From an uncultured Acidimicrobiales bacterium (GTDB taxonomy: Bacteria; Actinomycetota; Acidimicrobiia; Acidimicrobiales; SZUA-35): DNA of 64,000 bases. The position numbers and the translations under genes are program-made. Below are positions 2,562-6,533 of this stretch, piece after piece. Every line of letters starts with the position of its first letter. The first letter of the stretch is position 1. Location of the stretch: positions 1 to 64,000 of the forward strand of contig CALIFY010000038.1 in the NCBI GenBank assembly GCA_938021675.1, in the 5' to 3' direction. The notes below the pieces were generated by a model. That model saw nothing but the letters and a program-made list of their open reading frames with translations, searched no databases and was not told the origin of the DNA.

Positions 2562-3119
2562 ATGGTTGCAGTTATGACCGCATCGAAGACCGAGAGCCAG
2601 CTCTCGTTCGAGAAGCACGTCCTCCCCGAACTCGACGTTTTGTACCGAACCGCATGGTCGCTCACTCGAGCGGATGCGGAAGCTCAAGACCTCGTCCAGG
2701 ACACTCTTCTTCGAGCCTTTCGAGCCATCGACCGCTTTGATGGCCGGTACCCCCGCGCCTGGTTACTCACCATCATGCGGAACGCAAACATCAACCGCGC
2801 CCGCAAAAAGAAGCCAGATCTACTCGACGACCCGGACCTCGCCTTCGAGCGCTCAGCGGATTTCGCCGATAACGACGACCCCGAGAAACTCGTCGTCGAA
2901 CCAATTTTCGATGCAGAGGTCAGCGCAGCGTTCACCGGCTTGCCAGACAAGTTTCGCCAGGTCGTCGAATTGGTCGACCTCAACGGTTTGGCATATCAGG
3001 AGGCGGCTGACCTCCTCGACATCCCGGTCGGGACCGTCATGAGTCGGTTACACCGAGGCCGGAAACGAATTCGGGATCATCTGGAAACGACGGGGTTGGA
3101 CGCGGAGGTACTGGTGTGA
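2562..3119 (+). CDS. sigR: ECF sigma factor, SigR/SigH type
   Basis: A 185-residue group 4 sigma factor. Region 2 spans about residues 18-85 (LYRTAWSLTRADAEAQDLVQDTLLRAFRAIDRFDG, then PRAWLLTIMRNANINRARK). Region 4 spans about 125-175 (LPDKFRQVVELVDLNGLAYQEAADLLDIPVGTVMSRLHRGRK). It is followed with a one-base overlap by an RsrA-type zinc anti-sigma factor, which together with the GGAAT-N18-GTT promoter identifies the thiol-oxidative-stress class. Starts at 2562 (nearly leaderless) and 2574 (ATG after AGGAG) are both possible. A mycothiol synthase gene in this window fits the thiol theme. Confidence 0.9.
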   Translation: MVAVMTASKTESQLSFEKHVLPELDVLYRTAWSLTRADAEAQDLVQDTLLRAFRAIDRFDGRYPRAWLLTIMRNANINRARKKKPDLLDDPDLAFERSADFADNDDPEKLVVEPIFDAEVSAAFTGLPDKFRQVVELVDLNGLAYQEAADLLDIPVGTVMSRLHRGRKRIRDHLETTGLDAEVLV

Positions 3120-3388
3120 TGCGGCGTGTGTTGGACAAGTTTCGTCGAGGTCTCTCTTGCGAAGAGGTCCTTGAGGTCCTCCAGGGATATCTCGATGGAG
3201 AGGTAGACGAGGACACGGCCCGCAAGGTCGCCGAGCACCTCGAAGGCTGCTCGATGTGCGAGAACGAGTCGAAGGTCTACCAGTCGATCAAGGCCTCGTT
3301 GGAAACCCGGCGAAAGCCGATCGACCCCGATATTCTCGACGCGCTCCAGCGCTTCGGCAACAATCTCGTCACCGATTCGAGTAACTGA
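3119..3388 (+). CDS. rsrA: Zinc-binding redox anti-sigma factor, RsrA-like
   Basis: About 89 residues. A cysteine near residue 14 (GLSCEEV), then H-x3-C-x2-C (HLEGCSMC) at about 40-47, gives spacings of 26, 4 and 3. These are exactly those of Cys11, His37, Cys41 and Cys44 in Streptomyces RsrA. In that family reduced zinc-bound protein holds the sigma factor, and disulfide formation releases it. The start is ATG 3119, overlapping the sigma stop (TGATG), or GTG 3116, which is 7 nt after GGAGG. Translational coupling with sigR is likely. Confidence 0.88.
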   Translation: MRRVLDKFRRGLSCEEVLEVLQGYLDGEVDEDTARKVAEHLEGCSMCENESKVYQSIKASLETRRKPIDPDILDALQRFGNNLVTDSSN

Positions 3389-3466: not shown

Positions 3467-4540
3467 TTACAGCGACGATGCAAAGGCAGAGATGTCGGCA
3501 ACCGTTGCTGCGAACACCTCGGGCATCACGTTGGGGAACAGCATGTCACCCGCATGGCAGGTGCCGTTGACGGTACGACCGACCGTCGGAACGCCGGCCG
3601 CCAGCAGCTTCGCATAGTACGCAAGCCCCTCGTCCCGCAGCGGATCGAGTTGGTTAACCGAGATCACGTGCGGTGGCAGACCCTCGAGATCGGACACATC
3701 AGCGTGGTATGGCCACGCCAGAGGGTTGGAGGAATTCTCTCCAGACGGATCGTAAATCTTGGCCAACGGCGCCATCATGTTGCTACTCAGAAAGTATCCA
3801 TCGTTCTCGATCAGCGAAGGCAAACTCGGATCGCCTGAGTCGTACACCCCCGATATGTAGGGGCAGAGGGCGTACACACCGTCGATCTGATCTTCCACAC
3901 CGTCCCGCTTTGCTTTGAGCGCTGAGGCAGCAGCCAGATTTCCGCCACCGCTCTCCCCCGACACGATCAATGACGTGATACCCAGCGCGCCGCGATTGTC
4001 ATGGGTCCACCGCAAAGCCGACGCGCAATCGTTCAACCCGGCGGGAAACGGATGGTTGCCAAGTTTGCCTGCACCGTTTCGAAACTCGACACCGATGACG
4101 ACCATCCCGGCGGCGGCCAAAGAGTCGCGCCAGTACTGGTAGTTTCTGTCGGCCGCGGTGGCCAGCACCATGCCGCCCCCGTGGGTATGAACCACACCAG
4201 GCATCGGCCCGTCGAGGCCGTTCGGCCGGTGGATATAGAGATTGATATCGTTGCCGTCGACGCCGGCAATTATCTCCGTCTTCCGGCTCACATCCAGCGA
4301 AGGCGGATCGGCAAGTAGCATGTCGAACACCGCGCCGAACCCTTCTTCAGCCGCCAGACAGTGCTGATATATTTCCTCGTCAGTCGATGACGTATCGACC
4401 GGCGACGCCGGTGGCATCTTGTCCATCTCGAACGGCGCCATCGCAGCCACCATCCTCGGGTCGGCTCTTGGGTCGGTCTGCAACTCCATGGTGGGCGTCC
4501 CGAGCCGCCCCGGCAGGTTCGGTGTGACGGTCTCACTCAT
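3467..4540 (-). CDS. Alpha/beta hydrolase, hormone-sensitive-lipase family esterase
   Basis: 357 residues. The oxyanion motif HGGG follows GVVHT at about residue 120. The nucleophile elbow is GESGGGN at about 195, a variant of the usual GDSAGGN. The acid is in NQLDPLRDEG (about 300) and the catalytic His in NGTCHAGD (about 330). These make an HSL-type carboxylesterase or lipase. No signal peptide is seen, so it is cytosolic. The ATG at 4540 has GGGGA five bases upstream. It is divergent from the leu leader; the natural substrate is unknown. Confidence 0.88.
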   Translation of the reverse strand: MSETVTPNLPGRLGTPTMELQTDPRADPRMVAAMAPFEMDKMPPASPVDTSSTDEEIYQHCLAAEEGFGAVFDMLLADPPSLDVSRKTEIIAGVDGNDINLYIHRPNGLDGPMPGVVHTHGGGMVLATAADRNYQYWRDSLAAAGMVVIGVEFRNGAGKLGNHPFPAGLNDCASALRWTHDNRGALGITSLIVSGESGGGNLAAASALKAKRDGVEDQIDGVYALCPYISGVYDSGDPSLPSLIENDGYFLSSNMMAPLAKIYDPSGENSSNPLAWPYHADVSDLEGLPPHVISVNQLDPLRDEGLAYYAKLLAAGVPTVGRTVNGTCHAGDMLFPNVMPEVFAATVADISAFASSL

Positions 4541-4657
4541 CGTGTTCCCCCATCGTATTCCCCTCGCTTCCGTCGATCAGCCGACACTAGTTGGATCTCC
4601 CACCACGACAAAAACGAGACCCGGCCGACGATCCGGGGTCACCGGACCGAACCGTGC

Positions 4658-4663
4658 TACACT
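4658..4663 (+). promoter_or_regulatory. -10 element placing the transcript start at the leu leader GTG
   Basis: TACACT lies 7 nt before the leader GTG at 4671, so the predicted transcript would begin at or within a base of the start codon. No good -35 was seen at the expected distance. Confidence 0.45.
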
Positions 4664-4670
4664 CAATGCC

Positions 4671-4715
4671 GTGATTGCGCTACTCGTCCTCCGACTTCTG
4701 GGCCCGGCCGCTTAA
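4671..4715 (+). CDS. leuL: Leucine leader peptide upstream of leuA
   Basis: A 14-codon frame, GTG to TAA, reading MIALLVLRLLGPAA. Five of its codons are leucine (CTA, CTC, CTC, CTT, CTG), lying 145 bp before leuA in the same direction. Leu-rich leaders that sense charged leucyl-tRNA upstream of leuA are established in Actinobacteria. The TACACT hexamer suggests a leaderless leader. I could not find a strong U-tailed terminator between 4716 and 4859. There are only short stems such as TGCGG/CCGCA around 4797-4814, so the mechanism (attenuation or another) is open. Confidence 0.6.
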   Translation: MIALLVLRLLGPAA

Positions 4716-4859
4716 TCAAGCGCGTCGGGATTCCCCTTCGGAGTTCGAGCATCTCGCAATTGGAGCCGGCACAAACGTGTCGCTTGGCAGAGGATGCGGT
4801 GGACTCTCCGCAATCGTCGTCGACCCAACACACCACTCCAACCGAGAAAGTATCGAATC

Positions 4860-6533
4860 ATGAAGCGTATGCCCGTCGAAAAGTACCAACAGTTTCCCCA
4901 GGTCGAACTGCCGGACCGCACCTGGCCGAGCGCGGTGACCCGCACCGCTCCACTCTGGTGCAGCGTCGACCTCCGCGACGGCAACCAAGCCCTGATCGAA
5001 CCGATGGACCCCGAGCGCAAACGAATGATGTTCGACAAGCTCGTCGAGGTCGGATTTACCGAGATCGAGGTGGGGTTTCCCGCCGCGTCCGAGACCGATT
5101 TCGAGTTTGTTCGCCAAATCATCGCAGACGGCGCCATCCCCGATCACGTCACTATTCAAGTCCTAACCCAAGCTCGCGACGAGCTGATCGATCGAACGTA
5201 TGAGTCGCTGGTGGGAGCGAAACAGGCCATCGTCCACCTCTACAACTCCACCTCGACGGTCCAGCGTAGAGTCGTCTTCGGGCTCGACGAAGCGGGCATC
5301 ACCGACATCGCGGTCAAAGGCGCCGAGCGATGCGTTGCAAACGAAGCGAGCGTGGCCGATACCGCAATCCGCTACGAATACTCGCCGGAGAGCTTCACCG
5401 GTACCGAGCTCCTGTTCGCTAAGCACATCTGTGAATCGGTGATGGACGTAATCCAACCGACCACCGACACTCCCCTGATCCTCAACCTCCCGGCGACGGT
5501 GGAGATGAGCAGCGCCAACATCTACGGCGACATGATCGAGTGGTTTGATCGACATATCGATGGACGCGACCGGATCGTGTTGTCCCTCCATCCCCACAAT
5601 GATCGTGGCACGGCGGTCGCCGCCGCCGAGTTCGGTGTGATGGCCGGCGCCGACCGGGTGGAAGGCACCCTCTTCGGCAACGGTGAACGAACCGGCAACG
5701 TCGACGTGGTGACGCTGGCCCTCAACCTCTTCAGCCAAGGTGTCGATCCGGGGCTCGACCTGTCCGACATCAACGAGTTGCGTCGGGTAACCGAGCACTG
5801 CAACCAACTCCCGATCCACCCCCGCCACCCTTACGTCGGCGACCTGGTGTATACCGCATTCTCCGGATCCCACCAGGATGCCATCAAAAAGGGGTTCGAA
5901 GCCATGGAGACCACGGGTCAAACGCTCTGGGAAGTCCCCTACCTTCCCATCGACCCCACCGACGTCGGGCGCAGCTATGAAGACGTCATCCGTGTCAACT
6001 CCCAGTCTGGCAAAGGGGGTGTGGCGTATCTTCTCAAAACCGACCAACAGCTCGACCTGCCCCGCCGGCTTCAAATCGAGTTCACCAGAGTCATTCAGCA
6101 GATCGCCGACACCACCGGAAAAGAAATTACCGGCCAAGAGATATGGACCGAGTTTCGCACCCACTATCTCGCCGCCACCAAACCATACGAACTCGTCTCA
6201 TTCTCCACATCCCAAAACGCATCCGGGGCCGACCGGGCACGTATCACGGCCAAGGTTCGGGTCGATGGTGAGGAACGTACATTCGATGGCGAAGGGGGCG
6301 GCTCGCTCGAAGCATTTGCCGACGCCATCACCGGTGGGCTCGGGCTTGAACTTCGAGTCCTCGACTACCACGAACACGCCATCGGTACCGGAGTCGATGC
6401 CAAGGCTGTGTGCTATATGGAGCTGAAGGTCGGCGACCGCGAGCTGTGGGGTGTCGGCATACACAGCGACATCGTCACCGCATCCATCCGGGCCATCGTG
6501 TCTGGCGTCAACCGTGCCCTGGAAATGAAGTAG
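4860..6533 (+). CDS. leuA: 2-isopropylmalate synthase
   Basis: 557 residues, the long actinobacterial LeuA type. It condenses acetyl-CoA with 2-ketoisovalerate, the first committed step of leucine synthesis. The HMGL-like TIM barrel begins with APLWCSVDLRDGNQAL (metal and substrate residues in DLRDGN). It continues through HPHNDRGTA and GTLFGNGERTGNVD. The C-terminal regulatory domain (from about residue 430) is the site of leucine feedback inhibition in the family. The ATG at 4860 gives MKRMPVEKYQQF, close to the family N-terminus; the ribosome-binding site is weak. Expression is probably controlled by the leader peptide. It converges on the DUF3179 gene with only 18 bp between stops. Confidence 0.95.
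   Translation: MKRMPVEKYQQFPQVELPDRTWPSAVTRTAPLWCSVDLRDGNQALIEPMDPERKRMMFDKLVEVGFTEIEVGFPAASETDFEFVRQIIADGAIPDHVTIQVLTQARDELIDRTYESLVGAKQAIVHLYNSTSTVQRRVVFGLDEAGITDIAVKGAERCVANEASVADTAIRYEYSPESFTGTELLFAKHICESVMDVIQPTTDTPLILNLPATVEMSSANIYGDMIEWFDRHIDGRDRIVLSLHPHNDRGTAVAAAEFGVMAGADRVEGTLFGNGERTGNVDVVTLALNLFSQGVDPGLDLSDINELRRVTEHCNQLPIHPRHPYVGDLVYTAFSGSHQDAIKKGFEAMETTGQTLWEVPYLPIDPTDVGRSYEDVIRVNSQSGKGGVAYLLKTDQQLDLPRRLQIEFTRVIQQIADTTGKEITGQEIWTEFRTHYLAATKPYELVSFSTSQNASGADRARITAKVRVDGEERTFDGEGGGSLEAFADAITGGLGLELRVLDYHEHAIGTGVDAKAVCYMELKVGDRELWGVGIHSDIVTASIRAIVSGVNRALEMK

What the first reader, a model, noticed from the sequence alone, without database searches (positions are those of the whole stretch)
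4658..4859. Leaderless leucine leader peptide controlling leuA
A 14-residue frame with five Leu codons (MIALLVLRLLGPAA) starts 7 nt after TACACT, so its mRNA probably begins at the start codon. No convincing U-tailed terminator is seen before leuA, so control may not be textbook attenuation.
Basis: partly seen in the sequence, partly recalled or inferred. Interest (0 to 1): 0.5.

Follow-up and report, generated by a model that had tools for sequence, protein, structure and literature searches.

The report
Leucine leader RNA before leuA
Just before the gene for the first enzyme of leucine synthesis, this bacterium has a tiny leucine-rich reading frame with a conserved folded RNA around it, probably a leucine sensor of a known general kind but with an RNA shape of its own whose pairing partner has shifted in this genus.

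Summary
A 14-codon GTG-started frame (4671-4715, five Leu codons) begins 7 nt after TACACT, ahead of leuA (4860-6533), in an Acidimicrobiales genome. It is not chance: of 37 leuA loci of the same family with upstream sequence, 36 carry the conserved core, and 36 of 38 leaders have TAnnnT 5-9 nt before a start codon. The last codons and the stop form a hairpin (P2) with strong covariation. A covariance model of these leaders found 12 further loci in the order, 11 directly upstream of leuA. The Leu codons form a second helix (P1). In other genera its partner is often the leuA Shine-Dalgarno (14 of 25), which suggests translational attenuation. In the window's genus (g1, with g3) the partner lies right behind P2 and pairing with the SD is absent, so the output step here is unresolved. 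The window has no U-tailed terminator; relatives with a different Leu leader mostly do (19 of 20). Leaderless Leu leaders and Leu-codon/SD pairing (LEU element) before leuA are already known in other Actinobacteria. This is a sequence-unrelated variant without an Rfam match. There are no expression data; leucine response is inferred.

The parts
4655..4663 (+). extended -10 promoter element TGC-TACACT; start of transcription expected at or next to 4671
   Evidence: TAnnnT 5-9 nt before a leader start in 36 of 38 related leaders, 32 of them at 6-8 nt; background 46 of 5396 start triplets of the window at 6-8 nt
4671..4715 (+). leaderless leader ORF, GTG start, TAA stop, (M)IALLVLRLLGPAA
   Evidence: consensus xxLLDLRLL(G/S/C)PAA in relatives
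4683..4694 (+). P1 5' strand: codon bases CUCG (4683-4686) and CUCCGA (4689-4694)
   Evidence: fold of the window leader; joint pairing test in g1/g3 z 7.5
4703..4713 (+). P2 5' strand CCCGGCCGCUU (last leader codons, first base of the stop)
   Evidence: covariation
4718..4729 (+). P2 3' strand AAGCG-(C)-GUCGGG; the rest of the stop codon lies in the loop 4714-4717
   Evidence: covariation; model R1 match 4674-4729, 73 bits
4738..4749 (+). P1 3' strand UCGGAG (4738-4743) and CGAG (4746-4749), just downstream of P2
   Evidence: about 110 nt upstream of the leuA start, so it does not cover the SD
4750..4859 (+). poorly conserved linker to leuA, without TAnnnT or U-tailed terminator
4860..6533 (+). 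leuA, 2-isopropylmalate synthase
   Evidence: TIGR00970/PRK03739; PDB 1sr9; start chosen by comparison with relatives

Best explanation
A cis-acting leucine sensor of leuA. Transcription starts at the GTG of a leaderless leader frame and ribosomes load at the mRNA 5' end. The Leu codons double as the 5' strand of helix P1; the last codons plus the stop form hairpin P2. With Leu-tRNA plentiful the ribosome runs to the stop, leaves, and P1 forms; with Leu-tRNA scarce it stalls on the Leu codons and P1 cannot form. In many leaders of other genera and families the P1 partner is the leuA SD region, so stalling would open the start site (translational attenuation). In the window's genus the partner lies just behind P2 and the step from P1 to leuA output is unknown. 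Shown here: leader, promoter spacing, P2, statistical pairing. Inferred: stalling, leucine response and direction of control.
For: Core in 36 of 37 same-family leuA loci. P2: 95.7% of 418 cells paired, 26 cells changed on both sides, 0 of 500 shuffles as high on these two measures or on the covariation score, slid versions at most 48.9% paired; with further families 46 such cells (50 rows, one a false opposite-strand match, alignment fitted to the model). The model, built on 38 leaders, found 12 loci not used to build it at E<=1e-6 in 298 genomes of the order; 11 of 12 lie directly upstream of leuA. Leu codons against the SD region: 25 leaders of other genera z 6.1, control region 2.9; best helix reaching within 13 nt of the leuA start in 14 of these 25; 11 later-found leaders z 6.6, control 1.4 (only -42 to +3 examined). 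Blocking the Leu codons raises computed SD openness by more than 0.1 in 13 of 25 and lowers it so in 4; a block at the stop leaves the mean at 0.42 against 0.43. Leu is 62 of 190 residues in the variable part of 36 leaders, with five synonymous codons, against 1321 of 13792 codons in 28 long frames of the window.
Against: No transcript, ribosome or expression data. In g1/g3 (13 genomes) pairing of the leader with the SD region is absent (z -1.0); in the window itself blocking the Leu codons lowers SD openness (0.59 to 0.39). P1 covariation in g1/g3 does not exceed shuffles (covariation score reached by 188, cells paired by 202 of 500). Single-genome P1 tests reach p<=0.05 in only 13 of 38, and a swap control (own leader against leaders of other genera on the same linker) gives a mean percentile of 0.70 but only 0.50 in g8 and 0.35 in g10. 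Genomes are related, so joint z values are inflated, as the control regions show. In P2 the number of pairs with a two-sided change was reached by 10 and 41 of 500 shuffles, and the number of pair types lies below the shuffles. PMC1262725 reports that codon mutations in the S. coelicolor leuA leader did not behave as classical attenuation. One family member (G031) lacks the element.
Confidence: 0.62

Rival explanations
1. Transcriptional control without an intrinsic terminator: Rho stops RNA polymerase in the long untranslated linker of the window's genus unless leader translation or P1/P2 prevents it.
For: Long linkers in g1/g3 (130-300 nt), no U-tailed terminator in the window, no pairing with the SD. 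PMC1262725 proposes Rho for terminator-less cys leaders.
Against: C-over-G richness of the window's linker is ordinary: 16.5% of random stretches are as high, and leuA coding starts are about as C-rich as the linkers.
Confidence: 0.16
2. The RNA, not the frame, is the sensor: P1/P2 binds a protein (as proposed for the LEU element), and the frame is read only incidentally.
For: Third codon positions in the core are almost fixed (CGA 38 of 38, CTT 37 of 38, CCG 38 of 38; partly by the selection motif), so RNA constraint dominates there. In G009 the stop codon is lost while P2 is kept.
Against: TAnnnT 5-9 nt before a start codon in 36 of 38 leaders of 12 to 31 residues; Leu is enriched about threefold outside the fixed core with varied synonymous codons.
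Confidence: 0.17
3. A nascent-chain arrest peptide: the conserved C-terminus RLLxPAA-stop stalls the ribosome.
For: RLLxPAA is conserved in sequence and position.
Against: Amino-acid changes there follow P2 pairing: of 8 GCC-to-GTC (Ala to Val) leaders 7 have the matching A and one a G-U pair, and all 4 ACC (Thr) leaders have the matching U. Synonymous change in the core is nearly absent, so the RNA explains the peptide.
Confidence: 0.04

Closest known systems
LEU element upstream of leuA in Actinobacteria (Seliverstov et al. 2005, PMC1262725; parts 1 and 2 of 3 of the text read, figures not held)
   Same: Leader frame with Leu codons before leuA; Leu codons pair with the leuA SD as a base stem (here statistically in genera other than g1/g3); inner structure around the leader stop; no terminator.
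   Different: Sequence unrelated: model R1 finds nothing at the leader in 21 loci of other Actinobacteria with LEU-like leaders. The leader consensus is LLDLRLLxPAA, not LLLLSCRxE. No pseudoknot was identified, but none was searched for systematically. In the window's genus the base stem does not reach the SD.
Leaderless leader peptide LeuL1 of Streptomyces lividans (PMC8079986; passages seen)
   Same: Leaderless Leu-rich 15-residue leader before leuA without a Rho-independent terminator.
   Different: MRFGLLLLSCRGEGL, a LEU-like peptide; no RNA family described in the passages seen.
Leu leader with U-tailed terminator, here seen in other Acidimicrobiia families
   Same: Short leader with Leu codons directly before leuA in the same class.
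   Different: Ends in three or four Leu codons at or one codon before the stop, followed by a U-tailed terminator (19 of the 20 regions with such a frame); the window has none.
ErmC-type translational attenuation (recalled, no call)
   Same: A stalled leader ribosome opens a sequestered SD.
   Different: Signal is an antibiotic and a nascent chain, not starvation at codons.

Membership tests
LEU element (Seliverstov 2005) | leader frame with a run of Leu codons before leuA | tested here: met
   the window has five Leu codons, at most two in a row
LEU element (Seliverstov 2005) | base stem pairing the Leu codons with the leuA SD | tested here: not met
   absent in g1/g3, the window included (joint z -1.0); present statistically in other genera (z 6.1; 6.6)
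LEU element (Seliverstov 2005) | conserved pseudoknot inside the base stem | not tested
   the folding calls (30, 42, 74) give nested structures only and cannot show a pseudoknot; no candidate seen by eye
LEU element (Seliverstov 2005) | shared sequence and structure profile | tested here: not met
   R1 finds no match at the leader in 21 loci with LEU-like leaders (identified by leader peptide, five also folded)
Classical transcription attenuator | U-tailed terminator between leader and gene | tested here: not met
   (3 of 38 leaders, not the window)
Leaderless leader peptides of Actinobacteria | transcript starts at the leader start codon | tested here: inconclusive
   promoter spacing fits in 36 of 38; no transcript data
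Rfam release 15 families | score above the gathering threshold | tested here: not met
   0 matches in the window at gathering; at E<=10 two weak unrelated hits in 4500-5000

The most novel reading that the evidence does not exclude
A leuA leader RNA family of Acidimicrobiales in which the sensing half (leaderless Leu codons plus P2) is kept while the partner of the Leu-codon strand differs: the leuA SD region in many leaders of other genera and families, a site right behind P2 in the window's genus, so that one sensor drives two different output steps in close relatives.
Probability: 0.33. Interest if true: 0.6.

Novelty: new variant of a known kind. Interest (0 to 1): 0.45.

Why it matters
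How leucine controls actinobacterial leuA was left open when leader-codon mutations in Streptomyces gave results unlike classical attenuation (as told in PMC1262725). This RNA shows the same logic with unrelated sequence, which argues that pairing of Leu codons with the SD is the functional part. Some genera keep that pairing and the window's genus does not, which gives a natural comparison. Three leucine leader designs before the same gene (this one, a Leu-run leader with terminator, and LEU) make leuA a good case of repeated evolution of one control task.

Tried and rejected
Chance frame: rejected. Second promoter between leader and leuA: no TAnnnT at 4737-4859 of the window; in g1/g3 linkers TAGGCT lies about 35 nt before leuA in G003 and G001, and TAnnnT further up in G010, G008 and G006. 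leuA coding into the linker: in the window the leader is in frame with leuA and the frame is open, but motif-to-start distances are not multiples of three throughout g1. Rare-codon pausing at CGA-CTT: CGA is 22% of Arg and CTT 13% of Leu codons. Rho signal: not distinctive. RNAduplex test of P1: 7 of 38 at p<0.05 and no value for one leader cut by a contig end; it joins distant helices across large loops, so I replaced it by the tests. One search used a recoded pattern of the leader and found nothing. One search stopped with a script error after its first half. One search counted 36 of 52 with duplicates; later counts use one locus per genome.

Selections: leaders of A1 were picked with a loose motif (CGACT[TC] ... 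CCCG[AG]C), so fixedness of those bases is partly by selection; 36 of 37 same-family loci pass it. Two duplicates (L052, L047) were dropped from then on. After I corrected the leuA start by hand for G004 and G029; starts were picked by script. The genome searches used stricter filters that lose weak matches, on samples of the class, phylum and order.

Unexplained: CGACUU stays fixed even where its P1 partner does not need it, as in the window.

Not in print: the listings show no paper on this leader (Acidimicrobi + leader peptide, gave one unrelated paper); only open-licence papers are held. Papers: PMC1262725, parts 1 and 2 of 3 read; PMC8079986, PMC3890552, PMC4046766, PMC5784534, PMC4633059, passages; PMC4833913, abstract and outline; the rest only as listings.

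Full report
What is there. At 4671-4715 a GTG-started, 14-codon frame with five Leu codons begins seven bases after TACACT. It precedes leuA (4860-6533), whose protein is 2-isopropylmalate synthase by TIGR00970 and PRK03739, with solved relatives such as 1sr9. The long frame upstream (3467-4540) runs the other way, so leuA needs a promoter in this gap. The nearest named relatives of LeuA are Acidimicrobiales metagenome genomes.

Conservation. A relatives search gave a LeuA match in 61 of 61 genomes, though in some only a distant homologue of about 30% identity. Of the 39 genomes of the window's family, 37 hold leuA with upstream sequence: the copy in G002 is cut and G030 shows none. 36 of these 37 carry the leader core; G031 does not, and its leuA may itself be leaderless. 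Two more loci, G059 (another family) and L071, give 38 leaders. In 36 of 38 a TAnnnT lies 5-9 nt before an in-frame start codon, in 32 of them at 6-8 nt; the exceptions are one leader cut by a contig end and one with 10 nt. Background in the window is 46 of 5396 start triplets at 6-8 nt; the leaders were allowed any in-frame start, so the comparison is approximate. The spacing holds although the leaders vary from 12 to 31 residues.

RNA or peptide. The consensus is xxLLDLRLL(G/S/C)PAA. In the core the third codon positions hardly vary (CGA 38 of 38, CTT 37 of 38, CCG 38 of 38), so the constraint there is on RNA. Hairpin P2 pairs CCCGGCCGYY with the sequence after the stop, and the stop lies at its loop. 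95.7% of 418 cells pair and 26 cells changed on both sides; no shuffle of 500 reached either value or the covariation score, and slid versions pair at most 48.9%. The number of pairs with a two-sided change (5) was reached by 10 of 500 shuffles, and the number of pair types lies below the shuffles. Ala-to-Val and Ala-to-Thr changes in the peptide go with matching changes in the other strand. Outside the core, Leu makes up 62 of 190 residues with five synonymous codons, against 1321 of 13792 codons in the window's long frames. That supports selection for Leu codons as such.

Independent check. A covariance model of the 38 leaders (R1) was run on samples of 395 genomes of the class, 298 of the order and 296 of the phylum. 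In the phylum sample only the window's genome matched at E<=1e-6. In the class sample the five genomes of the window's family scored 57.9 bits or more, one genome of another family (G413) 42.3, and every other listed match 28.5 or less. In the order sample 25 of 298 matched at E<=1e-6, 13 of them already in the model. Of the 12 others, 11 lie directly upstream of leuA (families f42, f17, f131) and one partial match (G725) does not. With these, 46 cells changed on both sides; no shuffle reached that, the cells paired or the covariation score, while 41 of 500 reached the number of pairs with such a change (50 rows, one a false opposite-strand match, fitted to the model).

Helix P1 and its partner. 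In the window CUCG and CUCCGA (4683-4694) pair with UCGGAG and CGAG (4738-4749). Single-genome tests are weak (13 of 38 at p<=0.05), and the swap control is mixed (mean percentile 0.70; g8 0.50, g10 0.35). Joint tests are clearer. In the 13 genomes of g1 and g3 the leader codons pair with the 45 nt right after P2 (z 7.5) but not with the SD region (z -1.0); controls gave 2.3 (mid linker) and 0.04 (leuA codons). In 25 leaders of other genera they pair with the SD region (z 6.1; control 2.9). In 14 of these 25 the best helix reaches within 13 nt of the leuA start. The 11 later-found leaders repeat the SD pairing (z 6.6; control 1.4, which looked only at -42 to +3). Relatedness inflates these numbers, as the controls show. 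Covariation of P1 inside g1/g3 does not exceed shuffles (188 of 500).

Working model. Blocking the Leu codons, as a stalled ribosome would, raises the computed openness of the SD by more than 0.1 in 13 of 25 leaders of other genera and lowers it so in 4 (mean 0.43 to 0.54), while a ribosome at the stop leaves the mean at 0.42. In g1/g3 it rises in 2 and falls in 1 of 13, and in the window it falls from 0.59 to 0.39. So translational attenuation is the best reading for the RNA family as a whole, and the output step in the window's own genus is open. Rho was considered, but the window's linker is not unusually C-rich.

Terminators. 3 of 38 leaders of this type have a terminator-like site, the window not among them. 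Of 23 leuA upstream regions of other Acidimicrobiia, 19 have a U-tailed hairpin; 20 of the 23 show a frame ending in three or four Leu codons at or one codon before the stop, and all 19 are among these 20. In 34 regions of other Actinobacteria 7 matched, six of them in or before the leader itself.

Known relatives. Seliverstov et al. 2005 describe the LEU element, in which Leu codons pair with the leuA SD around a pseudoknot, and judge classical attenuation unlikely (PMC1262725). A leaderless Leu leader before leuA is reported in S. lividans (PMC8079986). Leu leaders before leuA are also reported in C. glutamicum (PMC4046766) and C. diphtheriae (PMC5784534, no start mapped). R1 finds nothing at the leader in 21 loci with LEU-like leaders, and Rfam has no match. 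I therefore call it a variant of a known kind: in many other genera it seems to work like the LEU element, but it is not a member by sequence, and the window's copy fails the SD-pairing test.

Noticed in passing
L064, L172, L178, L180 and similar (0.1-0.25 kb before leuA): Other Acidimicrobiia families have a different leuA leader ending in a Leu run, followed by a U-tailed terminator, i.e. the parts of a classical Leu attenuator; 19 of 23 upstream regions have the terminator.
   Followed up: partly
L184 (G031), last 30 nt before leuA: This reduced relative lacks the leader; TAGGCT lies 6 nt before an in-frame ATG, so leuA itself may be leaderless.
   Followed up: no
L007 (G009), leader stop: TAA has become TTG, so the leader frame is extended by six residues, while P2 is kept.
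   Followed up: no
L004 (G001) and L002 (G003), about 35 nt before leuA: TAGGCT, a possible second promoter downstream of the leader in two g1 relatives.
   Followed up: no
window 2562-3388: Overlapping frames that look by eye like an ECF-type sigma factor (2562-3119) and a small anti-sigma-like protein (3116-3388); named from recall, not searched.
   Followed up: no
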